Assembly: GCA_959347315.1 (NCBI GenBank)
Contig: OY365807.1
Span: 30,423,128 to 30,487,127 of the forward strand
Reading direction: 5' to 3'
DNA: 64,000 nt
DNA from: Bimastos eiseni
Lineage: Eukaryota > Annelida > Clitellata > Crassiclitellata > Lumbricidae
Below, in pieces: positions 9,431-53,572 of this stretch. Within the stretch, counting starts at the first letter, position 1. Each line of letters begins with the position of its first letter. The notes beneath the pieces were generated by a model. It did not search any database. It saw only the letters and a list, made by a program, of their open reading frames with translations, and was not told the origin of the DNA. A program made the position numbers and the translations under genes.

Positions 9431-12400
9431 ATATTGAATTTCTACGGTTTGATGGCTTTGAAGGCAGTCGACGGATTTATCTATCCTAGAATTATACAGT
9501 TTTTTTAAGTAGTGAGAGTTCGTCAGCGCACGATTGTTATAAAATTACGTTTCAATTGAGGCCAGGATAAGAGATTTTTATATATTATCTAATAATACTA
9601 AAGAGATTTTTCAGGATTTTAAATCAAAATGTGTAACCTATGCAAATGGTAACCAGAATTTAACTCCATAATATTCACCGTTGAGCAGTTATAACATCCC
9701 ACGACGTCATAATACGTATTGCTATGGCAACGCAGTAGAGACGTTCATCTTTTAACATTTGAAACCGAATTTGTATACATCTGGTTCCATTCAACCCACT
9801 TCATGTATCTTCATTCCCTTCCCCTTCTCTTATCCATGTATCTTAACAACAAAGACCCGTCACGACCCTCTCCGAGTCGGAAGACCATATCACGCAGCTG
9901 GATGGCTTCTTCATACAACAAACAACCCCAGACCGTTGACTCACAAGAGGGACCAAGGCCCAAACAAAAGGGGATTTGCGGAGCATGCCACAGCGAATGG
10001 AAACTGCACAACAAGAATGGCCTCGTGCACAGACATGCACCCAGAGACAACCCGTGCCCAGGTTCTCACAAACCACCAATAGGTCTCCGTGTTCCGACAG
10101 AAGAACCTCCCGATACAAGGACACAACAGCCAGCAACATCTCTGGGTACAAATGAGATAAATGTAGTCAATTCCATTCCTCATCCATGCTTGACTGCCAG
10201 TCTGATGAAACACATACCCAAAGCAACCAGACCAGGTTTGAGCGCCTTGTTAACCACAATTATAGGACGGATTCTCCGAGATCCATGCTCATTGGCTCAA
10301 TGGAGGCAGCTTTTCGCCTTTGGTGCACTGACATTAGCCAAGCCTACAAGAGGAGGCAGACGCCATAACATGACCATAAAAATCAAACAAAGATCTAGCG
10401 ATTTCCTGGCCAGAAGCTCCAAGGACATTGACTGACTCTTTAACGGCCAAGAGGGATCAGAACACAGAAAGAAAGAAGAAAAGCAAGTGGAACAAACGAG
10501 GGCCTCAGCCGTGGCCTCTAACTTGGAAGATGGGAATATCCGAGCAGCAGCTAGGATTCTGAGCTCGGACGACAAGCCAATTCCAATTAACGAGACCACA
10601 TGGAAAGAGCTCAAAACAAAACATCCGCCCCCACCTCAGAGCCAGGAGCCAGTGCCCGGGCCACCGGATGCCGCCCCGCTTCAGATGACCGAGGAGAACG
10701 TAATCAGATGCATTCGCAACTTCCCGGCGGGATCAGCCGGTGGGCCAGACGGCCTACGCCCCCAGCACATCCTAGAGTTAGTCAGCCAACCAGACTCGGG
10801 CCCAACTCTGCTAGCCGCCATTACGGCTATGGTAAACTTGCTTCTCGCAGGAGAATGCCCTTCTGGTATTCGAGCAACCCTTTTCGGTGGAACTCTCGTC
10901 GCCCTTAGGAAAAGCACGGGAGGTCTGAGGCCCATTGTCATTGGTTACTACTGGCGCAGACTGACAGCCAAATGTGCCAGCTCTTATGCGGCGCCTAAAG
11001 TTGCTGAATACCTCTTTCCCAGACAAGTCGGAGTTGGTGTACCAGGACGATGTGAGGCAGCAGTACACGCAACAAAACGATTTTTGAACAGTTTAGACAA
11101 CGAAACAATCATAGCCAAAATAGATTTCTCCAACGCATTCAACAGCCTGTACAGACTTGAAATGTTGACAGCATTATATAAAATTCTTCCTGAACTGGCA
11201 CCTTTTTGCAATCTAGCTTACTTGGAGCACTCACATCTTAAATACGGTCGATACTGTGTCTTGTCCCAAGTGGGGCCCCAACAAGGCGACCCTTTGGGTC
11301 CCTCACTCTTCTGTCTACCTCTACAGCCCATCCTCATCCAAATGAAATCGCCGCTCACAGTAGGTTTTCTGGACGACCTAACACTAGGTGGCAGAGCGGA
11401 AGAGGTTGCGAAAGATAAAAACAGACTCGAAACCGATGGCGAAAAACTCGGCCTTTTCCTAAATCGAACAAAATGCGAGATCATTTCGACTTCTGCAGAT
11501 ATCCAGAGAGACTTAGAACCATTAAGACAGTTCAGATGGACTAACCCTTCAGAGGCCACACTCCAAGGCACACCTCTGTCAACGGATACGGCCTTGACGA
11601 ACACTTTGAATGCGCGCACAGTGGAGCTAATGCGCATGATGGAAAAACTAACGTCCATCGCCACACACGACGCCCTCATCTTGCTCCGATACTCGCTGAG
11701 TGCCACCCGACTATTATATACCCTCAGAAGCTGCCCATGCGAAGGCCACAAAGGACTGGAGGAGTATGACAAGGCCTTGAGGGTGGGCCTCGCTGAGGTG
11801 CTCAATCTTGTTCTCACCGACGAGGGATGGCTCCAAGCCACCCTGCCCATCAAAAGAGGAGGAATGGGCATTCGATCAGTGGTTTTGCTGGCACTTCCAG
11901 CCTTCTTGGCATCGGCCGCAGCCACTGATATACTCCAGATAAGGATTCTGTGAGGAAAGCCTAAAAAGGACCCTGCCCTGGAGATCCTTCAGGCCAAATG
12001 GAGGGAAACCAGCGGAGTACCAGAGCCGGAAGAAGCTTGGGCTCACAAATAATCGAGATGGGACGACCCTTTGATCGAGATCGGAGTGGCAGACATCGCC
12101 TCCAGAATGCCTGATTCCCAGAATCAGGCACGTCTTAGAGCAGCGGCAGCACCACACGCAGGCGACTGGCTCTTAGCCCTACCGATTACTAACTGCGGGC
12201 TGAGACTTGACGATGAGTCCCTGAGGGTGGCGGTGGGTTACAGACTTGGATTACCTGTCTGTTTACCTCATTCCTGCCCATGCGGTGCCCTGGTCGAGAG
12301 AAACGGATATCACGGTCTCTCATGTGGCCTGGGCCTGGGACGCTGGCCCAGACACGCGGCCCTGAACGACCTTATTTGTAGAAGTTTAATCCGTGCAGGG

Positions 12401-17761: not shown

Positions 17762-17792
<31 letters not shown>

Positions 17793-17802
17793 GATAGATG
17801 AT
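17720..17802. repeat. (GATA)n leading into satellite
   Basis: TAGATAGATAGA and GGATAGATAGATAGAT tracts, then two ATAGATG units that bridge into the heptamer array. Confidence 0.9.
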
Positions 17803-18621
17803 AGATGATGGATGATGGATGATGGATGATGGATGATGGATGATGGATGATGGATGATGGATGATGGATGATGGATGATGGATGATGGATGATGGATGAT
17901 GGATGATGGATGATGGATGATGGATGATGGATGATGGATGATGGATGATGGATGATGGATGATGGATGATGGATGATGGATGATGGATGATGGATGATGG
18001 ATGATGGATGATGGATGATGGATGATGGATGATGGATGATGGATGATGGATGATGGATGATGGATGATGGATGATGGATGATGGATGATGGATGATGGAT
18101 GATGGATGATGGATGATGGATGATGGATGATGGATGATGGATGATGGATGATGGATGATGGATGATGGATGATGGATGATGGATGATGGATGATGGATGA
18201 TGGATGATGGATGATGGATGATGGATGATGGATGATGGATGATGGATGATGGATGATGGATGATGGATGATGGATGATGGATGATGGATGATGGATGATG
18301 GATGATGGATGATGGATGATGGATGATGGATGATGGATGATGGATGATGGATGATGGATGATGGATGATGGATGATGGATGATGGATGATGGATGATGGA
18401 TGATGGATGATGGATGATGGATGATGGATGATGGATGATGGATGATGGATGATGGATGATGGATGATGGATGATGGATGATGGATGATGGATGATGGATG
18501 ATGGATGATGGATGATGGATGATGGATGATGGATGATGGATGATGGATGATGGATGATGGATGATGGATGATGGATGATGGATGATGGATGATGGATGAT
18601 GGATGATGGATGATGGATGAT
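17803..18621. repeat. (ATGATGG)n heptamer satellite, about 117 copies
   Basis: About 819 bp of an almost perfectly homogeneous 7-bp unit. Because 7 is not a multiple of 3 the array stays open in some frames, giving a false Ile-Ile-His-His-Pro-Ser-Ser protein on the minus strand. Confidence 0.97.
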
Positions 18622-19154
18622 GGATGGATGGATGGATGGATGGATGGATGGATGGATGGATGGATGGATGGATGGATGGATGGATGGATGGATGGATGGA
18701 TGGATGGATGGATGGATGGATGGATGGATGGATGGATGGATGGATGGATGGATGGATGGATGGATGGATGGATGGATGGATGGATGGATGGATGGATGGA
18801 TGGATGGATGGATGGATGGATGGATGGATGGATGGATGGATGGATGGATGGATGGATGGATGGATGGATGGATGGATGGATGGATGGATGGATGGATGGA
18901 TGGATGGATGGATGGATGGATGGATGGATGGATGGATGGATGGATGGATGGATGGATGGATGGATGGATGGATGGATGGATGGATGGATGGATGGATGGA
19001 TGGATGGATGGATGGATGGATGGATGGATGGATGGATGGATGGATGGATGGATGGATGGATGGATGGATGGATGGATGGATGGATGGATGGATGGATGGA
19101 TGGATGGATGGATGGATGGATGGATGGATGGATGGATGGATGGATGGATGGATG
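18622..19154. repeat. (ATGG)n tetramer satellite, about 133 copies
   Basis: About 533 bp of a perfect GGAT/ATGG tetranucleotide, directly continuous with the heptamer array. The heptamer is the tetramer plus ATG, so the two arrays are related. Minus-strand open frames read (IHPS)n and plus-strand frames (MDGW)n; these are not genes. Confidence 0.97.
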
Positions 19155-24282: not shown

Positions 24283-24344
24283 TGCATGGAGTTTCCATTT
24301 TTACAGCATTCTTTTATTTGCTGAACACATCTCTAATCTCTCTC
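24283..24344 (+). mobile_element. Left half of a non-LTR retrotransposon split by the Polinton
   Basis: The last bases before the Polinton can be read as LFAEHISNLS (about 24314-24344), matching the segment just before the YYHLRRLR region of CR1/Jockey-type reverse transcriptases. It continues directly in the right flank at 35526. A one-base indel lies just upstream, near 24310. Confidence 0.6.
24339..24344. repeat. Polinton target-site duplication, left (TCTCTC)
   Basis: A 6-bp direct repeat identical to 35520-35525. Six base pairs is the expected size for Polinton integrase. Confidence 0.9.
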
Positions 24345-24611
24345 AGTAGTAAGAAAGTGAATAAACTAGGACAATTGACCAACATTATGGTCAATTCACC
24401 ACCTAATAGCTTATAAAACCTAATATTAACCTATAATTAGGTTACAAAATCACCAAAATTCACAACAATCCACATCATGGTTCTAATACCAACCAAATAG
24501 GCCACCATAAAATTGAAAAATGAGCCAAAATTCGTGCACAAACCATGGTCAAAACGTCCGCCAATAGGTCAAAAGTCACGGGAATTTTCAATAGTTTTGA
24601 TGATGAGTCAT
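24345..24611 (+). repeat. Polinton left terminal inverted repeat
   Basis: About 267 bp matching the reverse complement of 35254-35519 with roughly 90% identity by eye. It contains AT-rich internal palindromes such as GACCAACATTATGGTC and AACCTATAATTAGGTT. Confidence 0.93.
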
Positions 24612-24706
24612 TCATTGCTCAACAAACAAAAAAACATTCTTTCATATGTAAAATGAATGAAAATATTTTTCTTTTTTCACTTAAAGGAATACCAACACAA
24701 TATAAA

Positions 24707-27700
24707 ATGGAATACACAAAAAAGACTGTTATTGAATTAAGAAAAATTGCGAAACAGAGCGGAATTGTAGGTTATACACGACTACGAAAAGCGGATTTGA
24801 TTGCTAAAATTGAAGCTCAAACACTCATCCCCTCATATTTTGCTCCAATCTCATCCACTGCTAGCTTGATGGACGCACCCGTTCCCGACATTAGAGTTCC
24901 AACACTCGTTCCCATGCCAGCTACGACAGCACGAAAAATATTCGCTAAGACTAAGTCTGCTATTAATACATTCGCAAAGTGGATTGAAGGGTACATACCT
25001 GAAGAACCAAGGAGAAATGTGAACGAGAATATAGAAGCACTGAAAACTAAAGTGAATTCTATATTCGGTCAAATTCTTATGAAAACACGCGAAATAAAAG
25101 AGGCGACCACAGCTATCAAGGACTTCACGAAACAATACACGGTCGAAGGAGCAAACGGAATTGACGCCACATCTTTTCTTGACACTGTTCGAGCAGAGGC
25201 GGTAGACTTGTTGACTAAAAATCGACAGACTAAGGTTAATTTCATCCTTACCTGCACAACGGAGCGTATTGATATGAAATCCGGGCAAGTAGATACCGAG
25301 GATTTTCCGTTTCGTTCAAAGACTGAGATGGTTCTAGACTCCACCGACACGTGCGAAATTTACAACAATGCCAAAGATAAAATCCTAGAGTCTATGGCAG
25401 CCTTCCAGATGCGAGGTAGTAACTGGAGACTTAGAGCGGCTAAAAAATTAGAAATCAACACGGTTGCTTATAAACCCCTGAAGGGTAGTTCTTATATTCC
25501 ACTACCGAAATGTCTAGCGATTAAAAAGGCTATTGTTAATATGAAGAACGAAGACGAAGAATGCTTCAATTGGTGTGTAACGAGAGCCTTAAACCCTGTT
25601 GACGAACATTTGGAAAGAATAACGAAAGAATTAATCAAACAGTCTGAGGAACTTGATTGGTTCAGCATTGAATTCCCAGTCGCAGCGGATGCTAACGTGA
25701 TAAGTAAGTTTGAGAGAAATAATAATATTAGTATTAATGTTTTCGGTCACGAGAAAGATGTTTACCTATTACCACTATATTTATCGAGGCACGAGAGCGA
25801 TATCGGTGTAGATCTATTACTCATTTCTGATGGAGAAAAGAAGCATTATTGTTAGATAAAGAACTTTAACAGATTGATGGCGATTCATAGAGAAAACTCA
25901 TACACTTCGATGCACTATTGTAAAAGATGTTTGATTGGATTCAGTAGAATAGATTCGCTACACAAGCACACCAAATACTGTTCCCAAAACGCCGTTCAAA
26001 AGATAGAACTTCCAGAACCAGGAACTATGTTGAGTTTTAAAAATTATTATCGAAAGATGAGAGATCTCTTTGTCGTGTACGCTGATTTTGAATCTTTCAT
26101 AAAACCTATAGACACCTGTCAACCAGATCCCAACATGTCTTACACCAACAGATATCAAAAACACGTTCCAAGTTCTTTCTGCTAATATATAAAGTGTTTT
26201 GACGATGACCTATATTCGCATGCTCCTGTGACGTTCACAGCAAAGAGCGAAGACGATGATGTAGCTCAGATATTCGTAGACAGTCTTATAGTGAACATAA
26301 AAGATACCTATGATCGATTTAAATTTCCAAAGAGAATGAAATTTGGAAAGAAAGAACATGCGCTATTCGATTCCACTATCGTTTGTCAAATATGCGAAGG
26401 CGAACTGGGTAAAGATCGAGTTAGAGACCATTTCCATTTAACTGGAAAATTTGGAGGCGCCGCTCATAAGATTTGTAATCTAAATTATATAGTTCCCAAG
26501 TTTTTCCCAGTATTGTTCCATAATCTATCCGGTTACGACAGTCATCTATTCGTAAAAAAATTACGAGGTGATGATAACGAAAAGATTAATTGCAATCCTA
26601 GCAACGAAGAAAAGTACATCTCGTTCAGTAGAGAAGTCGTAGTTGATAATTTTATAGAGGAAGAAAATAAGTTAAAAACTGTCAAACGAAAATTACGTTT
26701 CATCGATAGTTTTAGATTCATGGCATCGAGTCTCGACGCCTCATCGAAGAACCTGAGCAAAGATCAGTGTGAGAATATAAGCAAACACTATTCTGGTAAT
26801 CAGCTCGATCTCTGGCTCAGAAAAGGATTATATCCTTACGATTATGTTGATTCCGTCGAGCGACTGAACGAAACAGAACTACCACCAAAGTCAGCATTCT
26901 ACTCAATACTTAACGACTCAGGTATTAGTGAGGAAGACTACAACCATGCACAGATGGCATGGAAAGAATTCGGATTCAAGACGTTGAGAAAATACCACGA
27001 TTTATATAAATGTGACTGATGTTCTCCTGCTTGCTGATGTATTTGTGAATTTTAGAGATGCATGCAGTGAGAACTATGGCCTAGATCCCGCCTGGTATTA
27101 TACTTCACCAGGTCTTGCTTGGGACGCGGCATTGAAGTTGACAGGAGTAAAGTTGGAGTTGTTGAGCGACTATGATATGATACTAATGGTTAAGCATGGG
27201 GTAAGGGGAGGTGTTAGCAACATTTCACACTGGTATGGACAGGCAAACAATAAGTATATGGGAGAAGCGTTTGACGATAGCAAGCCTTCAATATTTATAA
27301 CCTATTTAGACGCGAACAACCTGTACGGATAGGCAATGTGTAAGAATCTACCAACTCATGGGTTCCAGTGAATGGGCAATGATGAGCTAAACGATTGGAG
27401 ATCTACACCATGTATATTAGAAGTCGACTTGGAATATCCTAGAGAATTGCACGATCTTCACAACGACTATCCTTTTGCTCCAGAGAGTGTTAAAGCCAAA
27501 GAATCGGATGTGTCAAAACTCATTCCAAACCTGTGTAATAAAGTAAAGTATATGGTCCATTACGAAAATTTAAAGCAGTATGAAAGTTTGGGTTTGAAGA
27601 TAATGAAAATTCATCTGGGAATTAAATTTGAAGAAAGTGCTTGGCTGAAAAAGTATATAGATCTAAATACTAATCTGAGGACCAGAGCCACCAACGATTT

Positions 27701-28495
27701 AGAAAATGACTTTTCAAACTAATGAACAATAGTGTGTTTGGCAAGACGTCTGAGAATATTGAGAATCGTGTAGACATAAAATTGGTGTGTAGTAAGAAGG
27801 AAGCTATTAAGCTAGCAGCGAGAACGAGTTACGACACTCGAACTATTTTTGATGAAAACCTAATCACCATTCACCTGAAACGGACGAAGCTATGTTACAG
27901 CAAGCCTATATATCTTGGTATGTGTATTTTGGTCTTGAGTAAAACTATAATGTACGATTTTCATTTTAATTATATCAAGAAAAGGTTTGAAGATAGAGCA
28001 AAGTTACTTTTTACAGATACGGATTCTTTTGCTTATGAAATTAAGACCGAAGACTTCTACGCCGATATAGCACCCGACATTAGAAGTAGGTTCGACACTA
28101 GCGACTATCCTAAAGACCCTCCCTCTGGTATAGAAACTGGCATCAACAAAAAGGTAATTGGCATGTTCAAAGCTGAAGCAGCCGGTAAACAGATCAAAGA
28201 GTTTGTAGGTTTAAGATCGAAACCTTATTCGTACAAGATGGCCGGAGTAGAGCACAAGAAATGTATAGGTGTCAGGAAGAATGTCGTTAAGAAATCAATC
28301 AATCACGAAAATAACAAAGACTGCTTGTTCACCAAGAGAAAACAATTGAGAAAGATGAATGTCATTCGATCGCATCTTCACGGCATCCACACCGAAGAAA
28401 TGAACAATGTAGCTCTCTCAGCAGACGATGATAAACGAGTGATTCAGAAAGATGGAATTCACACTTTAGCATATGGACATTATTCTCTTATATAA
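24707..28495 (+). pseudogene. PolB: Protein-primed family B DNA polymerase (Polinton), broken
   Basis: Would replicate the element by protein priming. An SAP-like N-terminus (KTVIELRKIAKQSG) is followed by exonuclease motif VVYADFESF (about 26072), an endonuclease-VII-like Cys/His insert (CQICEGEL ... AAHKICN, about 26389-26480), the exonuclease HNLSGYDSHLF and YHDLY-MTDVLLLAD motifs, palm motif A TYLDANNLYG (about 27300), motif B KLMNNSVFGKT (about 27717) and motif C FTDTDS (about 28013). Lesions: TAG at 25853, TAA at 26183, a frameshift near 27010, TAG at 27330 (Trp expected after NNLYG), TGA at 27369 (Trp expected after GFQ), and a one-base loss near 27715. Start chosen at the Met of MEYTKKTV, just inside the left repeat; the frame is open back to 24545. 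Confidence 0.93.
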
Positions 28496-28496
28496 A

Positions 28497-28857
28497 ATGG
28501 GTGTTAAACAAATCGAAAACTAAATATAAATAATTTCAGAGGAGTTTTTCTAAGAGACGAGTTGCCGAAGAGGCCAAAAGCGAACGAATGTGACATCCTT
28601 AATCTCGATGATTCTGACGGCAAAGGAACGCATTGGACGTGTTGGATCAAGCGCACCAATGATAAGATTTATTTCGGCAGTTATGGGCTACCTTCACCTA
28701 CGGATTTGATAAACTATCTACAAAAACCGCTATTCTACAACAGCGAACGAATACAGCCTAAAGGTGAAGTGTATTGCGGTCATTTGTGTTTGTATGTATT
28801 GAAGAAGACGATCAACGATGATTGTAAATCTCAAGAAGTCGTAAACGAATTGTATTA

Positions 28858-28858
<1 letters not shown>
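28497..28858 (+). pseudogene. Adenain-like capsid maturation cysteine protease
   Basis: Cleaves capsid proteins during virion maturation in adenoviruses and related viruses. Visible motifs: NFRGVFLRDELP, the catalytic His in GTHWTCWIK, FGSYG, and the catalytic Cys in YCGHLCLYVLKK. From 28562 the frame is clean to the TAA at 28856. The N-terminus is damaged: the only upstream Met (28497, MGVKQIEN) is one frame off and closes after eight codons, while the protease frame is open from 28508 without a Met. A one-base indel near 28515 is inferred, so the catalytic part is intact but the start is lost. Lies directly after PolB. Confidence 0.85.

Positions 28859-28859
<1 letters not shown>

Positions 28860-28901
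<42 letters not shown>
28860..28901. repeat. (TA)n tract between protease and fibre-like gene
   Basis: About 20 TA units ending two bases before the ATG at 28903. It occupies the whole promoter position of the next gene, so it probably expanded after insertion. Confidence 0.9.
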
Positions 28902-28902
<1 letters not shown>

Positions 28903-29727
28903 ATGCCTGCTGATAAATTTGGACGAACTGGTACTGGATCAACTCAAAGAATAATTTCTGGAGGTATTACTCTATCTCAAGCGAGTAATACATTTCTAAA
29001 AAGAGATGGAACGAACGCAATGGAGGGTGATTTGGAAATGAGCGGCAACTCGATAAAAGATTTACCGACTGACATTCATCCACCAGTCTTAGCCAGCCAG
29101 GCTGCGAGCTTTGGACAAGTCAAAGCCTTAGTCAACCAAGCGATAACGAATAATTCTTCCAGCGACTACCTGAGATCATTCGTGACAGCGGCTCCAACCA
29201 TGACTTCTGATACAACGATAATAAACGGTTTAACTTACGAAGCTAGTGCTAGCAGTTTTCGCAGTGTGCACGGTCATGAGTTCGGTCCATGGAGGGCTTT
29301 TCAAAACGCTTCTCACTACCCCGACATTTGGGTCTCTGAAACAACCGCAAATGTTTGGATACAGATGAAGTACCCCATTCCTCTATCAATGTCGGGATTT
29401 TACATCATCGCTGGCCGTTCTGATAATGAAGAAATTACTAGTTGGAAAGTCCAAGCTAGTAACGACGGAATAGTATTTACAGATATCCTAACCTCTCAAA
29501 CGAATGTCCTCCATTTTGGAGTTTTTATAAAGTTTGCATTTCCCCCTTCAACTAATTACGCGTATTGGAGATTGCATGTTATATCCACGAGTCCTGGTGC
29601 TGAAACAGCCGCCGTCTGCATGCTACAGTGGAAACCAACGCTGGCCGATCTCGCACGAGGAAGAAAATGTTACGTCTGTTACGTGTTACATCATCGCCAT
29701 CGGCGTAAAAGGTTCCATCCGCTTTAG
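28903..29727 (+). pseudogene. Fibre-like protein with discoidin (F5/8C)-like domain, 3' end fused to antisense capsid DNA
   Basis: The first 60 residues (FLKRDGTNAMEGDLEMSGN, then SIKDL) resemble the repeat seen in phage and adenovirus-like fibre shafts. Residues about 85-245 fit a jelly-roll discoidin/F5-8C domain: GPWRAFQN, WVSETTANVWIQMKYP, MSGFYIIAGR, SWKVQASNDG, YWRLHVIS. Such a domain would suggest glycan or receptor binding on the virion. The last ~16 residues are translated from the opposite strand of the truncated capsid gene, so the natural C-terminus is lost. Function is inferred from fold-like features; a cellular discoidin protein is an alternative origin. Confidence 0.65.
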
Positions 29728-29918
29728 TCAGTCTGCCTTCGAAAAGCAGGTATGACTCAGCTGGATGGCTGAAAAGATCTTGAAGTTCGATGTTCACGCG
29801 AATTTCCCCTGGGGCTGTTAAGATTCGCCCCCGCCACTGGTTCGTACTTGTGCCATTCGTATCTCTCGACTGTTTCATCTGTAGTATTTTCAATAAATCT
29901 TAGAATATCCGACTGCAT
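29680..29918 (-). pseudogene. MCP: Major capsid protein (double jelly-roll), N-terminal remnant
   Basis: Starts at the ATG 29916-29918 (MQSDILRFIENTTDE). It carries the conserved opening of Polinton capsid proteins: APGEIRVNIELQDLF, PAESYLLFEGRLTKADG and YADGDDVT. A frameshift near 29815 splits it. Only about 80 of some 450-600 residues remain, because the gene runs into the tail of the convergent fibre-like gene at about 29640-29690. Most of both jelly-rolls is deleted and no capsid could be made. Confidence 0.75.
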
Positions 29919-29943
29919 TTTTTAAATATAGCGATAAATTATT

Positions 29944-30360
29944 TTAAGCCAACTTCATTCCATATCCACGCACCAGATCTTGGATCGACGCGGCGCCACC
30001 GTTACCGGATAGTAAATTATTTATATTCGTATTTCCGTTGGGGTATATTAAACCCTTTAACGCTTCCTTGCTCTGTTGGCTGAGTACGGCTGATTGCGGC
30101 GGTGGTGGATTAAACATCTTTGCCGCTGCTTTATCCACCAATCGCTTTCCAACATAGATAGCAACGGTCTTATCAACAGCTATAGCCTTTTTTCCAATCT
30201 CCGTTGCAGCGTCTTTCCCAGCACTTAATGCGGTTGTTGATACCTGTCTCGCCGCATTCGAGGATAACATTCTTTTGAAAAATTCTGATACCGTATCAAA
30301 TATTCCAGAGCCTCCTACGACGTATCTTTTAGTAAATCTTCTCTTAGTTATGACAATCAT
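29944..30360 (-). CDS. Conserved Polinton small protein (138 aa)
   Basis: Open from ATG 30360 to 29944. The basic N-terminus (KRRFTKRYVVGGSG) is followed by an Ala-rich helix region (SSNAARQVSTTALSAGKDAA) and a C-terminal SIQDLVRGYGMKLA motif. I recall similar small proteins next to the capsid gene in other Polintons, but no activity is established. A DNA-binding or core-like minor virion protein is a reasonable guess. It overlaps the upstream gene by four bases (ATGA), a compact viral arrangement that implies shared transcription or reinitiation. Confidence 0.6.
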   Translation of the reverse strand: MIVITKRRFTKRYVVGGSGIFDTVSEFFKRMLSSNAARQVSTTALSAGKDAATEIGKKAIAVDKTVAIYVGKRLVDKAAAKMFNPPPPQSAVLSQQSKEALKGLIYPNGNTNINNLLSGNGGAASIQDLVRGYGMKLA

Positions 30361-31244
30361 TTTATAATTGTAATCATTAAATTTTTATACTCTAACGCAT
30401 TTATCACATTTTGTCGAAGTAACTCATCGCAGATACCGACTATCTCGTTTCTTAATCCCATATTTTCCGCTTTGAAGCTAGCGAATCGAAGAGTTAACAT
30501 ATTCACCAGCGCATTAGGATCTTGCGGAAGAACTACGACTCCTTCGCCCGTTGAGATACTCCCTCCCCATATCGGCTTAATGATTTCCATATATTTTTCG
30601 CTTCTAGACGACTTGGGTTTGTTCAGATTCTCAGGTTGACGGATTGCGTTTGTCACAGTCAAATCCCATTCAAGTCTTTGAGATCGCTTATGTGGTATAT
30701 CGTCTTGTCTGGTTTTGCCCTTGTCAATAACTCCCAAAGTCCCGGAGTTCCCTTATAGGTAACATCTCCGATAGTTATATCATCACCTTCGATCGTGACT
30801 GAGCTGTCCTCGATGTGAAGTCGACCATCTTTAGAGCATATTCCGAAGGTCGTATCCGTCGACTTCTTGTTTGTAGCTTATTCTTTTAAATATTTTATTG
30901 CTATATCACCTAATTCCAAAATTCTAATATCTGAAACGGGATCATCCTCGAACACATCTATCGATGGATATTGTGGGAATTAAATCGCTTTCAACGATGT
31001 CGATGTCGATGCTGGCAATGCTCGCAGTTGTTGCCATAGAGTTCTCTTTTATAGTACCTAATTCTTTGGATATTCCCGACTGAAAGTCGATTATCGGTTT
31101 GTACGCCTTTATCAATTCTCGCTGAAGTCCATTGTCCCCTATATTCTCGGATAACTAGTCTTGTCTAATATTTTGCTTCGTCTTGAGGAAGTTCTCAACG
31201 ATAAAATCACGTTTGGCTGGGTGTTTGATTTTTAGAAACGACAT
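30357..31244 (-). pseudogene. Conserved Polinton capsid-associated protein, broken
   Basis: Starts with MSFLKIKHPAKRDFIVENFL at 31244 and continues LIKAYKPIIDFQSGISKE, a helical opening typical of this Polinton family. A middle segment at about 30720-30860 carries TTFGICSKDGRLHIEDSS and GTPGLWELLTRAKPDKT. The C-terminal part (30357 to about 30665) has KPSSRSEKY-like, GEGVVVLPQDPNAL and NEIVGICDELLRQ motifs. Lesions: TAG at 31155-31157, loss of frame near 30890-30960, and a one-base shift near 30665. The open frame that appears to start at 30737 therefore has a false N-terminus. Role unknown; a virion-associated coiled-coil is inferred. Confidence 0.65.
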
Positions 31245-31341
31245 TTTGAACATGGGAACATAATATTTAAACGTAAAAACATAATATTTAAACGTAAAAA
31301 CGTAAAACGTAAAACATAAAACGTAAAACGTAAATTTACGT

Positions 31342-31820
31342 TCACTTTGTATTCAATTCGTTTTGTCTAATGAGCGATTGTTTCGTCGCTTCATCTATGT
31401 TGGCATTGCTTTTACTTCTAACCTCTTCCTTCATTTCAATAAATTTCTCTAATTCACTTAGAATAACAGAATATTCCGAGTGTGAGATATTATTATCATC
31501 TAAGGCTTTCGAAACAAGGTCGCTGATCGAATTGAGTTTCCCGTCGCCTATTGTCTTGATCTTTGAAGGTTTACTTGCCGCGGCGATAGAAGTCGGCAGC
31601 CTTGAGCAGATATCAAACACAATGGTACTTAGAAAAGTTACGCCTAATGCGGCGAGTCCTGAAGATGTAAGGGTTAACAAACCTCCCAACGCCTCGATTA
31701 CTTTAACACTCTTTTGATATTTTTACAAATTATTTCTCTCTTTTCACGTTCTCGTAATATTTCCTGCTGAATTTCAGATATTTTCTGAAGGCGATAGGTG
31801 TATGCTTTATTCAATTCCAT
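31342..31820 (-). pseudogene. Conserved helical Polinton protein, one frameshift
   Basis: Begins with MELNKAYTYRLQKISEIQQE (31820), a charged coiled-coil. This is followed by a hydrophobic Gly/Ala segment (LTLTSSGLAALGVTFLS) and a C-terminal helical region with KLNSISDLVSKALDDN, ISHSEYSVILSELEKF and EEVRSK. The 5' and 3' parts are in different frames, with the shift near 31710. The same order of coiled-coil, hydrophobic core and SDLVSKAL helix is found in other Polintons, where it is unannotated. A membrane-active minor capsid role is a guess. Confidence 0.55.
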
Positions 31821-31861
31821 TTTATAATATCAAAGAATATTCTTAAAATGGAATTCAAGTT

Positions 31862-32146
31862 TTATTCGTTGACGCGGTAATCGACATAACATAACGAATC
31901 TCCTTCGTTTATGGTGACAGTTCCAAGATCTCTGAAATTCTTAATATCGAGTAAAATTTCTTCCGTGACTCCAGTAACGGTATCGCTTAGCAGGCGACAA
32001 CCCGCTTCTATAAATTCCGGATGGAGCGAAACTTTACACGATCCTTTCGTCATTCGGACACCTAAGCCTAAGGGTAAAACAATCGTCTCATGAGAATGAA
32101 TAGTTATTGTAGATTGAGCAAAAAACTCCCATCTTAAACCACCCAT
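31862..32146 (-). CDS. dUTPase-like small beta-barrel protein (94 aa)
   Basis: WEFFAQSTITIHSHETIVL, then PLGLGVRMTKG, follows the start of trimeric dUTPases, and the C-terminal GTVTINEGDSLCYVDY corresponds to their V.x.GDrIaQ motif. The Ser-rich phosphate-binding motif (SRSGLA-type) and the usual aromatic/catalytic Asp motif are not evident, so enzymatic activity is doubtful. A structural use of the fold is possible. The frame is intact, unlike most neighbours. Assignment rests on sequence pattern only. Confidence 0.45.
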   Translation of the reverse strand: MGGLRWEFFAQSTITIHSHETIVLPLGLGVRMTKGSCKVSLHPEFIEAGCRLLSDTVTGVTEEILLDIKNFRDLGTVTINEGDSLCYVDYRVNE

Positions 32147-32335
32147 TTGTCTTTGCGGCCTATACTTGACATCCTACATACCTTCACACGCCTTCCACGT
32201 GACGGAGCTCGGTTGTGTTCTCGTAGATTTTTCAGTTTTGGGTTTTGTCTACCCCATTTTGTGAATCGGATAAAGATATTATTTTATATTGAAATGACTT
32301 TTTATTTAAGCTGAGATAAGAAGAAAATTATAGTA

Positions 32336-33000
32336 ACAATCCGAGAAGTGGAATGTTTTTAAACGGTGAATCTGGTCCAAGGGTAAGTCCTTCGCCGTTT
32401 ACGAATCCAGGGCCTGTTTTCAGTTACAGACCTTCTCTCACACCATCAAGTCCAGAACCTTGCCATGGCTTCAGGTAAAGACCATTCCCTTGTTGCACTA
32501 TCTTGTAGTTTCTACCTCGACTAATTGAGATATATTGCACCACCCGATCCGGTGACTTTGTCTATGACTTTTGATCCAGCCGCTGCACCTATTCCTGTTA
32601 ATGCACCCGTTGCTAAGCTCGGTAATACGCTCGATAGCAGAAATTTGCCCGCAGTTGCTAAAAATGGTAACATGGCGCCGATAAAGTCGCCTTCGACTTT
32701 GGCATTATGTATCAATTGCGTTTTACTCATTTTTATAGTCGCACCCATTCCAACATGATACGCCTTAGTCAACTTAGTTTTTGTTAGTCTCATCGATGTT
32801 TGGGAATGAAAAAAATATGTTTCCAGATTGACAAGAGCCATCTCGTACTTTTTGTTTTTATCGAACTGAATCAACGGATTGAATCGAGTCCTTATTCGCG
32901 ACCTCTTATCACTCAATAATATGTAAAACGATGACTTTGACTCTGTGTAACGAGCGATCCTTTCCGTGTAGTCTGCAATCTTTTGTAACAGCGATTCCAT
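32336..33000 (-). pseudogene. Penton-like minor capsid N-terminus fused by deletion to pX-like hydrophobic protein
   Basis: From Met 33000 (MESLLQKIADYTERIARYTE) the frame shows RFNPLIQFDKNKKYEMALVN and LETYF, the opening of the Polinton penton-like minor capsid protein. It then switches abruptly, near 32790, to GMGATIKMSKTQLIHN followed by a hydrophobic stretch (GAMLPFLATAGKFLLSSVLP, then ALTGIGAAAG). That pattern belongs to a separate pVI/pX-like gene. The rest of the penton jelly-roll is therefore deleted. Past the stop at 32521 the reading continues in another frame (KIVQQGNGLYLKPWQG, SPFKNIPLLGLLL) to about 32336, with a further stop near 32432. The open frame extends upstream to 33045, but Met 33000 matches relatives better. 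Confidence 0.65.
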
Positions 33001-33022
33001 TTTTATAATATAAAAGACTTTT

Positions 33023-33800
33023 TTATAATGGAATGTTGAATTCATCGAAACCGCATCTATACTTGCCGTTATTCTTATTACTAGTCTGATCTATCACTAC
33101 AAATCCATGAGGTTGCTTCCAGGCTGTTTCACATAGTTGCTTAAACTCATCCTTAGACATGTCTGTACTTACGTGATGGTGGTAAATGTGATTAATATTT
33201 TTCTGGTCTTGAGGAAACAAGCAGATAAAGTTTGCATTCTCTCTGATCGCCTGTGTAGGTAGTTTGAAATAATTTTGAGCGAGGTAGAAGCAATCAACGT
33301 TACTATGCCTTACCCGGATGTAGTAGGTCTCACATTTATTTTGCTTTTCTAACTGTAAATCATCGAAAATCATCAAGTTTTTGTTTTCACGATTCAAGTC
33401 TCTCGGGTCTGGCACATCTTCGGATGATTCAAAGAACTTACAGCAGATATCAGATTTTTTATACAAGTGTTTAGCCATTGCCTCAACTACTAAGGCCGGC
33501 GGAACATTTAGTCTCATGGTCTCGTCTTGGCAATTGAATAGCCCGATGATGGATTCTTTCAGTTTTTTCTTCTTCAAATGCTTGATTGAGTATTTCATAC
33601 TCTGGTTGAAAGAGAAATCTTCCGAATACTTGCAGATTGTCGTAGTCTAGCCATCCAGGTCTTAGAAGTAGGTTCAACAATAAAGTCGTCTTACCGCATC
33701 CGGACTTTACTACGATTAACCCTCTTATACTTCTAGGTAAAAGAGGGTTATTGAATTTCTTAGATAATACGTCGTTCCACGATAAATCTTTGACTTCCAT
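33023..33800 (-). pseudogene. FtsK/HerA-type genome packaging ATPase, one frameshift
   Basis: Pumps the element's DNA into capsids in related viruses. From ATG 33800: MEVKDLSWNDVL, then a Walker A region KSGCGKTTLLLN. The first Gly of the usual GxxGxGKT is Val here (VVKSGCGKT), which is itself likely damaging. The frame changes near 33560 (after FEEEK) and resumes as ESIIGLFNCQDE. Walker B is NLMIFDDL (about 33362), followed by the arginine-containing YIRVRHSNVDCFYLAQNY. The 3' end overlaps the next gene's longest frame at 33023-33045. It is divergently arranged with the phospholipase gene, sharing about 30 bp. Confidence 0.85.
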
Positions 33801-33830
33801 TTTAAATATATCTAATTGTATTTAAAAAGG
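33801..33830. promoter_or_regulatory. Divergent intergenic gap between packaging ATPase and phospholipase
   Basis: Thirty bases of A/T-rich sequence (TTTAAATATATCTAATTGTA) separate two divergent start codons. It is the only place for a shared bidirectional promoter. No specific element is recognised beyond the TA-rich core. Confidence 0.3.
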
Positions 33831-34364
33831 ATGTATTGCGTAAAGTGTAAAACTCGTACTGAAACTAAAAATATTCAAAATGTTACAACGAAGAACGGAA
33901 GGTCAATGCCTAGAGGTACATGTGATATATGTGGAAAAACAAAGACACAATTCGTGAAGTCTTCTGAAGGTGGTGATTTAGTTGGATCTTTAAATTTGGT
34001 TACCGGCGGTATTAAGCTGCCGTGGGCTAAATATCCAGGTGAGATGCACTTGCCGGGACATTCGTTTACTGGTCCTGGTACTAGACTTGATTTGAGACTG
34101 AATTGCGATGGAACTCCTAAGGATTGGTCGAAGCCCGTCAATGGAGTCGACGACGCTGCATATCATCACGATTTAGCTTACGGCCAGCACTCCGATACAT
34201 CTTCTAGGAATGTCGCCGATAGAACGATGATTAATGAGTTGAATAATATTCCTAATCCTAGTTTACGGGAGCGAATAGAAAGAAGTCTTGTCAAACTTAT
34301 ATTATCTACCAAAGCTAGTCTCGGGTTAGGTTTTAAAAAGCCTAAAATTACAATAGACTTATGA
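33831..34364 (+). CDS. Zinc-ribbon phospholipase A2 (parvovirus VP1u-type), intact
   Basis: A 177-residue open frame. The N-terminus is a zinc ribbon (CVKC ... CDIC, residues about 3-40). The C-terminal half is a secreted-type phospholipase A2 as found in parvovirus VP1 and Polintons: calcium loop YPGEMHLPGHSFTGPGT and catalytic HD in YHHDLAYGQHSD. In parvoviruses this activity breaches the endosome during entry; here the role is inferred by homology. Start at 33831 (MYCVKCK) is preferred to an upstream non-ATG extension. It is one of the few element genes without a lesion. Confidence 0.85.
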   Translation: MYCVKCKTRTETKNIQNVTTKNGRSMPRGTCDICGKTKTQFVKSSEGGDLVGSLNLVTGGIKLPWAKYPGEMHLPGHSFTGPGTRLDLRLNCDGTPKDWSKPVNGVDDAAYHHDLAYGQHSDTSSRNVADRTMINELNNIPNPSLRERIERSLVKLILSTKASLGLGFKKPKITIDL

Positions 34365-35254
34365 ACTCGCGGATGAATTGCATAAACCCGTAGTAAGACG
34401 TTTTAGGAAAAGGAAGGTGTACGTTGGTGGAATAGATGAAATATGGGCTGCTGATTTAGTCGATATGGAGAGTTTCGCTAAAGATAACGATGGCGTGAAA
34501 TACTTACTAACCGTAATAGATGTGTTTTCCAAGTACGGTTAGATTGTACCATTAAATGATAAGAGTGGAAAATCTACGGCTAGTGGCATCGTGAAAATAT
34601 TAGAGAGCGGTAGAAGACCAGGCAAGGTTTGGGCGGATAAAGGTAAAGAATTTTACAATAAAGACGTTAAGAAATTAGTCGAGTTGTATTCTAAGGAGAA
34701 CGAAGAAAAGTCGCGCGTTGTTGAGCGTTGGAATAGAACAATGCGTGAAAAAATATTTTACAGCTAATTCAACTAGACGATATATCGATGTGTTGGATGA
34801 ACTGGTTAGTAATTGTAATGAAACTAGGCATTCTTCCATTAAAATGACACCCTCTAAAGCTAGTTTGAAAATGAATGAAAAGGTAGTTTGGATGAACTTA
34901 TACGGTTATGAGATCTCGGAACCTATTATAGCCAGGTTTTCGATGGGTGATAAAGTTAGAATAACGAAGAGGAAGAACATCTTTGAAAAAGGTTTCACAC
35001 CGAGATGGACGGAAGAGATCTTCACAATTTCAAAGATTCAATACACGGATCCACCAACTTATAAGATCACTGATTATAATGGTGAGGAAATACAGGGCTC
35101 ATTTTACGAACAGGAGCTACAGAAGGTTACTCAAGAAATATTTAGAATAGAAAAAGTTATCAGGAAACGGGGAAACAAGTCGCTGGTGAAATGGCTTGGT
35201 TATCCTGAGTTATTTAATTCATGGATTGATAATGAAGACTTGGTGGCCACGTGA
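34361..35254 (+). pseudogene. INT: Retroviral-type integrase with chromodomain (Polinton), broken
   Basis: Inserts the element. The DDE core is visible: first Asp in IWAADLVDM (about 34440), second in VWADKGKEFYN (about 34630), Glu in NEEKSRVVERWNRTM (about 34700). Then come TRHSSIKMTPSKA, an SH3-like region (FSMGDKVRITKRKNIFEKGF, about 34935) and a C-terminal chromodomain (RIEKVIRKRGNKSLVKWLGY ... NSWIDNEDL, about 35145-35245), which would target modified histones. Lesions: TAG at 34540 in place of an aromatic residue after SKYG, and a frameshift near 34755. The start is uncertain and seems to overlap the phospholipase end. The stop coincides with the inner edge of the right terminal repeat. 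Confidence 0.92.
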
Positions 35255-35519
35255 TGACTCATCATCGAAACTATTGGAAATTCCCGTGACTTTTGACCTA
35301 TTGGCGGACGTTTTGACCAGGGTTGTGTATGAATTGTGGCTCATTTTTCAATTTTATGGTGGCCTGTTTGGTTGGTAATAGAACCATGATGTGGGTTGTT
35401 GTGATTTTTGGTGATTTTGTAACCTAATTATAGGTTGATAATAGGTTTTATAACCTATTAGGTGGTGAATTGACCATAAAATTGGTCAATTGTCCTAGTT
35501 TATTGAATTTCCTACTACT
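35254..35519 (-). repeat. Polinton right terminal inverted repeat
   Basis: Inverted partner of 24345-24611. Scattered single-base differences show independent decay since insertion. Confidence 0.93.
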
Positions 35520-35525
35520 TCTCTC
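35520..35525. repeat. Polinton target-site duplication, right (TCTCTC)
   Basis: Identical to 24339-24344. Confidence 0.9.
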
Positions 35526-36140
35526 GGTCTAGTTACTACCACCTGCGACGACTTCGAGCTGTCAGGCGATTTGTTCCCTCATCCGTTTTTACCACTGTGG
35601 TTCATGTTTCTGTCTGCTCCCGCATTGATTACTGTAACTCGCTTCCTATTGGTCTTCCGAAATCTTGCCGGTCACCTCTTCAATTTTTACTAAATGCAAC
35701 TTCCCGTCTGATCGCCCGCCTTCCTCGCTACTCTCACATCTCTACCTTCATAACTGAGCACTTACACTGGAATCCGCTCATAGCCCGCATTCGATTTATA
35801 GTTCTTATCTTTACAACCAGAGTGTTTTTGGGTGAGGCTCCACGCTATCTTTGTGACCTTATCCGCCGTCCTATTTCGGTTTCCTCTCGTCGTCCTCTTT
35901 GTTCCTTAGATCGACATGATCTCTTGGTCATTCGGACTCGGACGGTTATCGCTTAACTTCGTGCTCATACGTCTGTTGGTCCTTTGCTTTGGGATGATTA
36001 GCCCTACATAGCTTGTTCTTCGATTTTAGCTCGTGGTGCATCTGCTTCTGCCCGCATTCTTAAGATTGTTCTTTTCCCATGGGAGTTTTCGCACTGAGGG
36101 CGTCTCTGATTAGGTTGTACTGGGAGAGGCGCTACAGGAA
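35526..36140 (+). mobile_element. Right half of a non-LTR retrotransposon (CR1/Jockey/RTE-like RT 3' region)
   Basis: Coding similarity to the C-terminal part of many marine-invertebrate LINE reverse transcriptases: SSYYHLRRLRAVRRF right at the junction, then SRIDYCNSLPIGLP, NATSRLIARLPR, HISTFITEHLHWNPLIARIR and EAPRYLCDLIRR. Stops appear after about 35956. Its 5' neighbour is at 24283-24344, so the Polinton inserted into this older element. The 3' end is not sharply defined. Confidence 0.75.
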
Positions 36141-46904: not shown

Positions 46905-47550
46905 GAACACACGCGCGCGCACACACAAATACACACGCACATGCACAGACATACCCAACACAACACAAGTATTAACAGTTATCTAAGACGCGTGTTTCGA
47001 CTGCAGCTACCTCGCTTACTCTTATTAGTTCTTCAGTATATATGCTGCGTTCGCAAGGATGTACACGTTGACGACGCTGTGACAATCATTAACCTATGCG
47101 CATCGAGGGTTTAAAAGCAATTGACATTCACGTTAACTTACGCACATTTTTATTTATTACTAGTATTTTTATTATTATCTTTTTATTGCCCCGACGTATA
47201 CATGATCTCTCAAAGAACTAGAATATTAATTAGAATAAGAAAATGTAGTCTGGAACTAGTCGTTCTCGCACGTGCCGAAAGAGCCTTTGAGTATTGCGCT
47301 AAAGCGCTGTTTGGTGACAGAGAGTCGCTAGAATAGAAAGGATGACGTCTCCCACTTTTCCCCAGACACGACGGTTCAGTCCATTCCCGAGATCCGTCAA
47401 GAACTCCAGGGCCTTGCACATACGTATAACAAGATTGGAACAAACTGCTAATCAGCAACTATATAAATTTATGTATAAATTCAATATTAAATTATTACCT
47501 TCGATTATTTTACCGCTATTTTTGACCCATATCCAACATTCACTCATATA
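46905..47550 (+). repeat. Inverted segmental duplication, copy 1 (empty site)
   Basis: Matches the reverse complement of about 58195-59325. Shared landmarks are the (AC)n tract at 46905, GACGCGTGTTTCGACTGCAG, the region around 47200-47350, and CCATATCCAACAT at about 47528. This copy lacks the 488-bp MITE found in copy 2, preserving the unoccupied target near 47325-47332. Confidence 0.75.
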
Positions 47551-52186: not shown

Positions 52187-53572
52187 TGTACGGTGATTCA
52201 TTAAAAAACGTACCCCTAGATATTTAATTGTAACTCCGTCAAATATCGGTTTATGTCAAAAAAATTTTAAGTGAACATAGAGGAATCAGTTCTGAATAGG
52301 AAGAAAGTTACAGTTTATGTTCAAATTGACCCCCTCGGGCAGTAACACACGCGCGAAGACGCCTACGCCACTGCCTGACTGACTCATCAATGATGCGCTG
52401 ATCCATTTCATCCCATACCTCCACAATTCGGTGACGCAACTCGTCGACATCATGTATTCGATTTCTGTAGACTTTATCCTGCATGACGCTCCATATCTTA
52501 TAGTCCACTGGATTCAAATCAGGGCTATTAGGTGGCCAGTAGTTAGGCGGGATGAAATCAGGTGTTTCAGTTTCGAGTAACGCAACGGTCTCCCGAGCTC
52601 TGTGCGCAGGAGCGCTATCCTGCTGGAAGATGAAATACTCCGTTATCTCACGAATGTCAGGCAAGAGACCCTGCATTAGTAGAACATCTCTGTAATATTG
52701 TCCATTAATCTTAACACCTGGTTCGATGAAATGGATGTTCGTACGACCGAGTGCAGATACCCCGACAGATACCATAAGGGACTTGCTGAAAGTTGGTCGA
52801 GTCCGCAAAAGACGATTTGCTGGAACGTCTCTCTTCCTTGTACCGGCTGAGACATAAATACGATCATTCTGACTGTTACTGGGTGCTGCCACAGTAAACA
52901 ATTTCTCATCAGTAAACCAAATGAAATTCACTAAGCTTGCAGGATACAACCTCAGTAGCTGACGGGAACGTGTCAATCTTGCTTGCTTGTTGGCTGCTGT
53001 GAGTTCTTGAGCGTGTCGTTTCTTTAAACATCGCAAATGTAAATCATTCTTGACAATTCTCCAAACTGATGTCTGACTGATTCCTATTTCTCGAGCAATT
53101 TGTCTCTGTGTGCGATGCGTTTGCGGCATATCTTCCTGGCTGAGCACCAGCGATTCAACCTTTTCAGCATTGTCGGTTGTTGCTGCCGTACGCGGGCGGC
53201 CGCTGCCTGGTCGACGATGGAAAGACCCAGTTTTGTCGATCTTTGAAAGTAACGCATTTAATCCACCAAGAGTCCACTCTTTATCAGGAAATTTCTTTAG
53301 AAAACGTTTTGCACTGTACTTTTTATTCTTTCGTAAGAATGTAACAAATTGTTTATCCTCTTCGGTAAACACCATTTTTTCGCGATATTTTCGTGACGTC
53401 ATTAGTTTCGTCAATCGCGTTACGTCATTTTAGCTTGGTGTGTCAAATGATTTATGTAGCACTTGAATAGAATATCAAGCATCATTATTCTGAAATTTCA
53501 TTAAAATTAATGGTCATTTACCTGAGTTATGCTAACCTATGTAAGGTACGTTTTTTAATGAATCACCGTGTA
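52187..53572 (-). mobile_element. Tc1/mariner-superfamily transposon, apparently intact (about 1.39 kb)
   Basis: Terminal inverted repeats of about 25 bp (CGGTGATTCATTAAAAAACG then TACC on both ends, inverted) flank a complete transposase gene. The flanks are TA on each side, as expected for this superfamily; the exact first base is ambiguous by two or three positions. No lesion in the gene and near-identical ends indicate it is the youngest mobile element in the window. Confidence 0.93.
52308..53414 (-). CDS. Mariner-type transposase, DD37D spacing, full length (368 aa)
   Basis: Cuts and pastes the flanking inverted repeats. The N-terminal half holds the paired helix-turn-helix DNA-binding region (TLGGLNALLSKIDKTG; RQIAREIGISQTSVWRIVKN) joined by the GRPR-type hook HRRPGSGRPRTAA. 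The catalytic Asp residues are in IWFTDEKLF (about residue 170), FQQDSAPAHRA, and SPDLNPVDYKIW. I count 37 residues between the second and third Asp, the spacing of the maT-like DD37D branch rather than Tc1 (34E) or mariner (34D). Start: Met at 53414; a second in-frame Met (MVFTEEDKQ) lies 13 codons in and may be the true start. No stop or frameshift. Confidence 0.93.
   Translation of the reverse strand: MTKLMTSRKYREKMVFTEEDKQFVTFLRKNKKYSAKRFLKKFPDKEWTLGGLNALLSKIDKTGSFHRRPGSGRPRTAATTDNAEKVESLVLSQEDMPQTHRTQRQIAREIGISQTSVWRIVKNDLHLRCLKKRHAQELTAANKQARLTRSRQLLRLYPASLVNFIWFTDEKLFTVAAPSNSQNDRIYVSAGTRKRDVPANRLLRTRPTFSKSLMVSVGVSALGRTNIHFIEPGVKINGQYYRDVLLMQGLLPDIREITEYFIFQQDSAPAHRARETVALLETETPDFIPPNYWPPNSPDLNPVDYKIWSVMQDKVYRNRIHDVDELRHRIVEVWDEMDQRIIDESVRQWRRRLRACVTARGGQFEHKL

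What the first reader, a model, noticed from the sequence alone, without database searches (positions are those of the whole stretch)
24339..35525. Complete-length Polinton with perfect 6-bp target duplication
Both ends, about 266-bp terminal repeats, TCTCTC duplications and the full ordered gene complement can be assigned from sequence alone. This gives an exact boundary for a fossil Polinton/adintovirus-like genome in this host.
Basis: partly seen in the sequence, partly recalled or inferred. Interest (0 to 1): 0.75.

Follow-up and report, generated by a model that had tools for sequence, protein, structure and literature searches.

The report
Decayed Polinton copy missing capsid genes
This is one old, broken copy of a virus-like jumping element (a Polinton) with its exact ends still visible; it has lost most of its main coat-protein gene, while many related copies, at least one much younger, sit in the same genome.

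Summary
The boundaries are right. Inverted repeats of 267/266 bp (24345-24611, 35254-35519; 248/266 identical) end in AGTAGTA/TACTACT and abut perfect TCTCTC duplications. The 660-Mb host genome holds at least 149 other integrase places and 39 other terminal repeats. In all 29 sibling repeat loci read, the best match starts within 3 bp of 24345. Of 10 sibling end pairs, 6 have identical 6-bp duplications.

"Complete-length" with the "full gene complement" is wrong. Against sibling stretches the copy lacks about 2.2 kb at 29686 and 0.75 kb at 32775, plus about 64 and 55 bp. About 340 of 428 residues of the double-jelly-roll major capsid protein are gone, with the fibre C-terminus and the middle of a putative minor capsid gene. 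It is 11,175 bp; 8 of 10 sibling pairs span 12.1-14.3 kb. Its arms are the most diverged of 11 pairs; one sibling's are identical.

Verdict: a decayed member of a known kind, Polinton/Maverick, from a large family with recent insertion. "Adintovirus-like" is not established.

The parts
24339..24344 (.). left target-site duplication TCTCTC
24345..24611 (+). left terminal inverted repeat, 267 bp, starts AGTAGTA
   Evidence: sibling starts
24527..28492 (+). family B DNA polymerase gene (organellar/viral type), broken into pieces (at least three in-frame stops and two frame changes by the ORF lists); Rho_N-like N-terminal stretch, EndoVII-like stretch
   Evidence: DNA_pol_B_2 on piece 27372-27719 E 1.5e-5 (24.5 bits, cut-off 25.8); Rho_N E 3.4e-9; sibling piece L063:2066-2854 DNA_pol_B_2 E 0.0017 and Endonuclease_7 above cut-off
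28516..28517 (.). small deletion relative to siblings, about 64 bp
   Evidence: L054, L055, L056; L063 spans it with 54 gap columns
28508..28855 (+). putative adenain-like cysteine protease piece (recalled motifs only)
   Evidence: no Pfam hit; PDB no significant hit in the window piece, African swine fever protease S273R at E 0.85 for the sibling piece
28903..29685 (+). fibre-like protein with F5/8 type C (discoidin) domain; C-terminal part with a second repeat lost in the deletion
   Evidence: searches (E 5.3e-6, 27.0 bits vs cut-off 28.2; phage tail PHROG 4.3e-9), sibling frames
29686..29686 (.). junction of a deletion of about 2.2 kb (2231 bp against L055, 2174 bp against L056)
   Evidence: spanned by 0 of 17 sibling loci with sequence near it
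29657..29918 (-). stub of the double-jelly-roll major capsid gene, residues 1 to about 90 of 428, in two frames
29944..32173 (-). several unassigned reading frames (29944-30384, 30357-30752, 31342-31722, 31862-32173); about 55 bp missing at 31624 relative to siblings L057 and L059
32524..33006 (-). putative minor-capsid (penton-like) gene, middle lost in a deletion of about 0.75 kb at 32775
   Evidence: name recalled, no library hit
33026..33800 (-). A32/FtsK-type packaging ATPase, nearly full length in two frames
   Evidence: residues 1-78 and 82-258 of the 258 of P0001, 83 and 81% identical
33831..34361 (+). DUF5679 + parvovirus-type phospholipase A2 protein, open frame
   Evidence: residues 1-170 of 177 of P0121
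34357..35254 (+). rve integrase with chromodomain-like C-terminus; one in-frame stop, one frame change
   Evidence: 149 other scored places in the host genome; open sibling frame L021: rve E 3e-6 (27.9 bits, cut-off 32.6) and Chromo E 3.4e-4
35254..35519 (-). right terminal inverted repeat, 266 bp, ends TACTACT
35520..35525 (.). right target-site duplication TCTCTC

Best explanation
24345-35519 is one integrated, decayed copy of a Polinton/Maverick, a virus-like self-synthesising element, in an unnamed 660-Mb genome (animal by its content, not identified). Shown: both ends, the 6-bp duplication, the gene remnants, and at least 149 other integrase places. Also shown: loss here, against sibling stretches, of most of the major capsid gene, the fibre C-terminus and the middle of a putative minor capsid gene. 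Inferred from the known family: a linear genome was copied by its own PolB; the rve integrase joined its AGTAGT ends to a 6-bp staggered cut; the virion module (DJR capsid, A32 ATPase, protease) packaged DNA; the discoidin fibre and PLA2 served attachment and membrane passage. This copy gathered stops, frame changes and at least four deletions and can no longer encode a virion; that these came after integration is inferred. The family itself kept inserting: one sibling has identical terminal repeats.
For: Ends and duplication. Same ends in siblings. Matching 6-bp duplications in 6 of 10 sibling pairs. Genes: and sibling frames. Deletions against siblings; junctions not shared. Arm-to-arm divergence K2P 0.071 against 0 to 0.067 in ten sibling pairs. 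Length 11,175 bp against 7.9-14.3 kb, 8 of 10 at 12.1-14.3 kb.
Against: TCTCTC is simple sequence, so alone it is weak. Two of 10 sibling pairs match at only 4 and 2 of 6 bases, and 3 of 7 right ends are diverged. The right flank starts with a LINE-like frame that the left flank does not visibly continue. Protease and minor-capsid names rest on recalled motifs. On the broken window pieces, PolB, rve, chromodomain and discoidin matches fall just or well under Pfam cut-offs; on the sibling integrase frame rve and Chromo are still under cut-off.
Confidence: 0.93

Rival explanations
1. The copy is complete and carries the full gene set.
For: Both ends and the duplication are intact, and remnants of most genes appear in a sensible order.
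Against: About 3.1 kb missing relative to siblings; major capsid residues beyond about 107 have no match in the window at E <= 1e-3 for any of 36 relatives.
Confidence: 0.02
2. The deletions came first: this is a capsid-less derivative that was replicated and integrated in trans by intact relatives, a non-autonomous Polinton.
For: Ends are intact; other short TIR-bounded copies exist (7,935 bp with a perfect duplication, and 9,339 bp with a 5-of-6 match).
Against: No sibling locus held spans either large junction: 0 of 17 with sequence near 29686, 0 of 8 near 32775. Frame breaks elsewhere fit ordinary decay. The genome-wide junction search did not complete.
Confidence: 0.08
3. It is an adintovirus proper (Eupolintoviridae, Alpha- or Betadintovirus) with an adenovirus-like hexon.
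For: rve integrase with chromodomain-like tail, PolB; definition read in PMC11071296 section 16.
Against: The major capsid relative is about 428 aa, has Pfam DJR-like_dom, and its low-confidence model matches PBCV-1, iridovirus, Sputnik and mavirus capsids, with no hexon in the 50 rows listed. No OTU hit on the N-terminal PolB piece.
Confidence: 0.3
4. Chance inverted repeats plus a low-complexity duplication around unrelated sequence.
For: TCTCTC occurs 28 times on the + strand of the window.
Against: Arms 92-96% identical to the left one recur at 39 other scored places, and the sibling ends read have their own outside sequence and often their own duplication.
Confidence: 0.001

Closest known systems
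Polinton/Maverick elements (vertebrate Mavericks of Barreat and Katzourakis 2021, PMC8097293; sections 6 and 7 and search passages read)
   Same: 6-bp target duplications, (AGT)2//(ACT)2 end motif, TIR length in the reported 46-1,447 bp range, PolB, rve integrase, ATPase, DJR major capsid; most copies degraded, as that paper reports for 96% of its loci.
   Different: This copy (11,175 bp) is below their intact range of 12,723-24,620 bp, through deletions. Gene order here is PolB, putative protease and fibre on +, capsid genes and ATPase on -, PLA2 and integrase on +, not their two modules pointing to the centre. PLA2 and discoidin fibre are not in their core set.
Adintoviruses (NCBI now Eupolintoviridae; PMC11071296 section 16 read; the 2021 defining paper is not held)
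   Same: PolB and rve integrase with chromodomain-like C-terminus.
   Different: Capsid relative looks more like virophage/NCLDV DJR capsids than hexon in a weak model; OTU domain not found; named reference sequences not available here.
Mavirus virophage
   Same: rve integrase and PolB kind (PMC3671162, passages read); mavirus capsid among the Foldseek matches.
   Different: Endogenous family with at least 149 other integrase places in one genome, with PLA2 and discoidin fibre; no tree made.

Membership tests
Polinton/Maverick | 6-bp target-site duplication | tested here: met
   TCTCTC both sides; sibling pairs: 6 of 10 perfect, 2 at 5 of 6 bases, 1 at 4 of 6, 1 at 2 of 6
Polinton/Maverick | long terminal inverted repeats with AG...CT ends | tested here: met
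   267/266 bp, AGTAGTA...TACTACT; same motif as in PMC8097293 section 7
Polinton/Maverick | family B DNA polymerase of the protein-primed kind | tested here: met
   DNA_pol_B_2 on one window piece, E 1.5e-5, 24.5 bits just under the 25.8 cut-off, and on a sibling piece E 0.0017; that it is protein-primed is recalled, not tested
Polinton/Maverick | rve-family integrase | tested here: met
   open sibling frame beside a TIR: rve E 3e-6, 27.9 bits, under the 32.6 cut-off; window piece only E 0.028; no PDB match for the sibling frame at E 1e-3
Polinton/Maverick | A32/FtsK packaging ATPase | tested here: met
   relative P0001 above the PF04665 cut-off
Polinton/Maverick | adenain-like cysteine protease | tested here: inconclusive
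   recalled motifs only; no Pfam support in window or sibling; sibling piece E 0.85 to protease S273R
Polinton/Maverick | double-jelly-roll major capsid protein, intact | tested here: not met
   only residues 1 to about 90 of 428 remain; 15 of 17 sibling loci with capsid matches extend past residue 110, several with gaps of their own. Absence in a decayed copy lowers 'complete', not 'Polinton'
Polinton/Maverick | minor (single-jelly-roll) capsid protein | tested here: inconclusive
   putative gene with about 0.75 kb lost; no library hit in window or sibling
Adintovirus (Eupolintoviridae) | integrase with C-terminal chromodomain | tested here: met
   Pfam Chromo E 2.1e-4 in the window (21.6 bits, cut-off 25.1) and 3.4e-4 in a sibling, both under cut-off; HP1 and CBX7 chains E 0.003-0.008
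Adintovirus (Eupolintoviridae) | PolB with N-terminal OTU-like domain | tested here: inconclusive
   no OTU family on the 442-aa N-terminal piece in Pfam, PHROGs or NCBIfam
Adintovirus (Eupolintoviridae) | hexon recognisable by BLASTP to reference adintoviruses | not tested
   no named adintovirus sequences at hand; model of relative P0241 resembles PBCV-1, iridovirus and virophage capsids (mean pLDDT 50)

The most novel reading that the evidence does not exclude
The host carries a large, very recently inserting Polinton lineage that combines an adintovirus-style integrase with a virophage/NCLDV-like major capsid, a parvovirus-type PLA2 and a two-repeat discoidin fibre. Copies with identical arms may still be mobile or infectious, while capsid-deleted copies such as this one, and the 7.9- and 9.3-kb ones, include derivatives mobilised in trans.
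Probability: 0.15. Interest if true: 0.55.

Novelty: new member of a known kind. Interest (0 to 1): 0.3.

Why it matters
It fixes the termini of an abundant Polinton family in this genome, so copies can be dated from their two arms and screened for insertion polymorphism. It also warns that intact ends and a duplication do not imply an intact gene set. That one sibling has arms without a difference makes recent activity of this family directly testable.

Tried and rejected
No relatives of the ATPase or major capsid protein were confirmed in IMG/VR or GTDB contigs, nor of the single PLA2 protein in IMG/VR. The PLA2 alignment found five 3.3-3.5-kb viral contigs at 34-41% identity, not used further. 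Phage records: no match at E 1e-3 for a PolB piece or the fibre. PDB by sequence: no match for 31865-32173, fibre or major capsid profile at the limits used, nor at E 1e-3 for the sibling integrase. A dUTPase-like reading of 31862-32173 was an idea from eye only and got no support, so it is dropped. Rfam and tRNA scans of the window were empty. Host identity was not determined. A PolB or integrase tree against named animal Polintons was not made: no named references, and PolB would have to be read through. A second copy with the capsid deletion was looked for only in the sibling loci held and not found.
Full report
Observation. The claimed boundaries are exact. Direct reading and repeat search give TCTCTC at 24339-24344 and 35520-35525 and inverted repeats 24345-24611 and 35254-35519. 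Aligned, the arms are 267 and 266 bp with 248 of 266 positions identical, one gap and K2P 0.071. The ends read AGTAGTA...TACTACT, the (AGT)2//(ACT)2 motif that PMC8097293 gives as the commonest for vertebrate Mavericks (section 7 read). TCTCTC by itself is weak evidence, being simple sequence (28 occurrences on the + strand).

Test of the ends by other copies. After several busy replies the host genome (660,451,143 bases, 118 contigs) answered two searches. The integrase piece gave 150 scored places, the window's own included, out of 1,717 first-look candidates; the others are 79-91% identical. The left terminal repeat gave 40 scored places, the window's own included, out of 980 candidates; the others are 92-96% identical. 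Both counts are lower bounds by the tool's own note. I read 29 of the 39 other repeat loci: the best match begins exactly at 24345 in 19 of 29 and within 3 bp in 29 of 29. Two loci have a second match, one starting at 24343 and one at 24356. In the 14 outside bases printed, flanks differ except that two loci on C14 share theirs. Of 7 sibling right ends, homology reaches 35519-35520 in 2 and stops at 35475-35498 in 5; by eye 4 of 7 show ACTACT at the corresponding place and 3 belong to a diverged repeat type. I put together 10 left/right end pairs from hits that could be paired, not a random sample. The six outside bases match perfectly in 6 of 10, at 5 of 6 in 2, at 4 of 6 in 1 and at 2 of 6 in 1; the last two have altered terminal bases at one end.

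Genes. On the + strand from the left: PolB in pieces, with DNA_pol_B_2 on one piece just under its cut-off and on a sibling piece at E 0.0017; a protease-like frame identified by recalled motifs (no Pfam hit; best PDB match of a sibling piece is African swine fever protease S273R at a non-significant E 0.85); and a fibre-like protein with a discoidin domain. On the - strand: a capsid stub, several unassigned frames, a putative minor-capsid gene and an A32-type ATPase. On the + strand again: a DUF5679 plus PLA2 protein with an open frame and a broken integrase with a chromodomain-like end. An open sibling integrase frame gives rve at E 3e-6 and Chromo at 3.4e-4, both below the curated cut-offs, and no PDB match at E 1e-3. 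The capsid stub was identified by its relatives: 36 proteins, 29 of them 415-447 aa, all with PF21738 in the search listing; a scan of two of them found the double-jelly-roll domain. A model of one relative is of low confidence (mean pLDDT 50), but its best PDB matches are PBCV-1, iridovirus, Sputnik and mavirus major capsid proteins.

What is missing. At E <= 1e-3 all 36 capsid relatives match the window only at about 29627-29921, ending at residue 74-107, most often 88 (20 of 36). Sibling stretches explain this. In L055 and L056 homology runs to 29685, leaves out 2,231 and 2,174 bp, and resumes at 29687; L053 and L054 carry about 2.7 and 2.2 kb extra there but are rearranged themselves. That stretch holds the rest of the capsid gene, a region with a NUMOD1 frame, and the fibre C-terminus with a second discoidin-like repeat. 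In L058 and L059 a further 764 and 747 bp lie at 32775, inside the putative minor-capsid gene, and about 0.6 kb in the weaker alignment of L060. About 64 bp at 28516 (L054, L055, L056) and 55 bp at 31624 (L057, L059) are also missing here. The sum, about 3.1 kb, would bring 11,175 bp to about 14.3 kb, the length of one sibling pair (14,299 bp). I held 78 sibling loci: 17 have sequence near 29686, 14 of them reaching within 12 bp of it, 4 from both sides with extra DNA between, and none spans it; of 8 near 32775 none spans it; of 8 near 28516 one (L063) spans it, with 54 gap columns. Some loci may come from the same copy. Of 17 sibling loci with capsid matches 15 extend beyond residue 110, and several have capsid gaps of their own, so capsid decay is common in the family. 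The losses described are private to this copy as far as sampled.

Age and activity. Arm-to-arm K2P in ten sibling pairs is 0, 0.015, 0.039, 0.043, 0.043, 0.044, 0.047, 0.054, 0.064 and 0.067; this copy, at 0.071, is the most diverged of 11. The pair with no differences in 266 aligned bases (C2:23047544-23061842, AATATA on both sides) shows recent insertion. Turning these into years needs a host mutation rate, which I do not have.

How it works. Inferred from known Polintons rather than shown here: protein-primed copying of a linear genome, integrase joining of the AGT ends to a 6-bp staggered site, and a virion module with DJR capsid, packaging ATPase and protease. PLA2 and a discoidin fibre plausibly serve membrane passage and attachment. 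A PLA2 domain is named in the Figure 1 legend of PMC3671162 (passages read), and discoidin-bearing proteins are reported in polinton-like viruses of protists (PMC12220804, passages read). One search for Polinton, DUF5679 and phospholipase A2 listed no paper with DUF5679 among its 7, which says little.

Known or new. It is a member of a known kind. 'Adintovirus-like' is left open: PMC11071296 (section 16 read) defines adintoviruses by an OTU-bearing PolB, a hexon recognisable by BLASTP and an integrase with chromodomain; only the last was met here, and that below Pfam's cut-off. The value lies in the exact ends, the proof that this copy is not complete, and the demonstration that the family is large and has at least one very recent insertion.

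Noticed in passing
35507-35956: A LINE-like reverse-transcriptase tail frame begins almost exactly at the right duplication, but the left flank does not look like its continuation; judged by eye, no Pfam hit.
   Followed up: partly
52311-53429 (-): Uninterrupted 373-aa frame of an IS630/Tc1-mariner-type transposase (DDE_3).
   Followed up: partly
47342-47511 and 58228-58397: 170-bp inverted repeats, 98% complementary, 10.7 kb apart; the ends were read but no terminal motif or duplication was tested.
   Followed up: partly
17786-19154: Satellite of about 186 copies of GATGGAT, 99% matches.
   Followed up: no
296-1192 and 2902-4023: 85-bp repeat arrays in opposite orientation around long imperfect hexamer arrays.
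   Followed up: no
10436-11950 (+): 505-aa open frame with RVT_1 (LINE reverse transcriptase).
   Followed up: no
26186-27016 (+): Weak endonuclease VII (HNH-like) match inside the PolB gene; above cut-off in sibling piece L063:2066-2854.
   Followed up: partly
L027 and L028 (C14:25645469 and C14:25051004): Two sibling ends share the same outside bases, suggesting that one copy was duplicated together with its flank.
   Followed up: no
L007, L009, L010 right ends: A second terminal-repeat type with diverged last bases, so perhaps two subfamilies.
   Followed up: no
L056:2619-2804 (+): NUMOD1-domain frame (above cut-off) between capsid and fibre genes of a sibling, lying in the stretch that the window copy lacks.
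   Followed up: no
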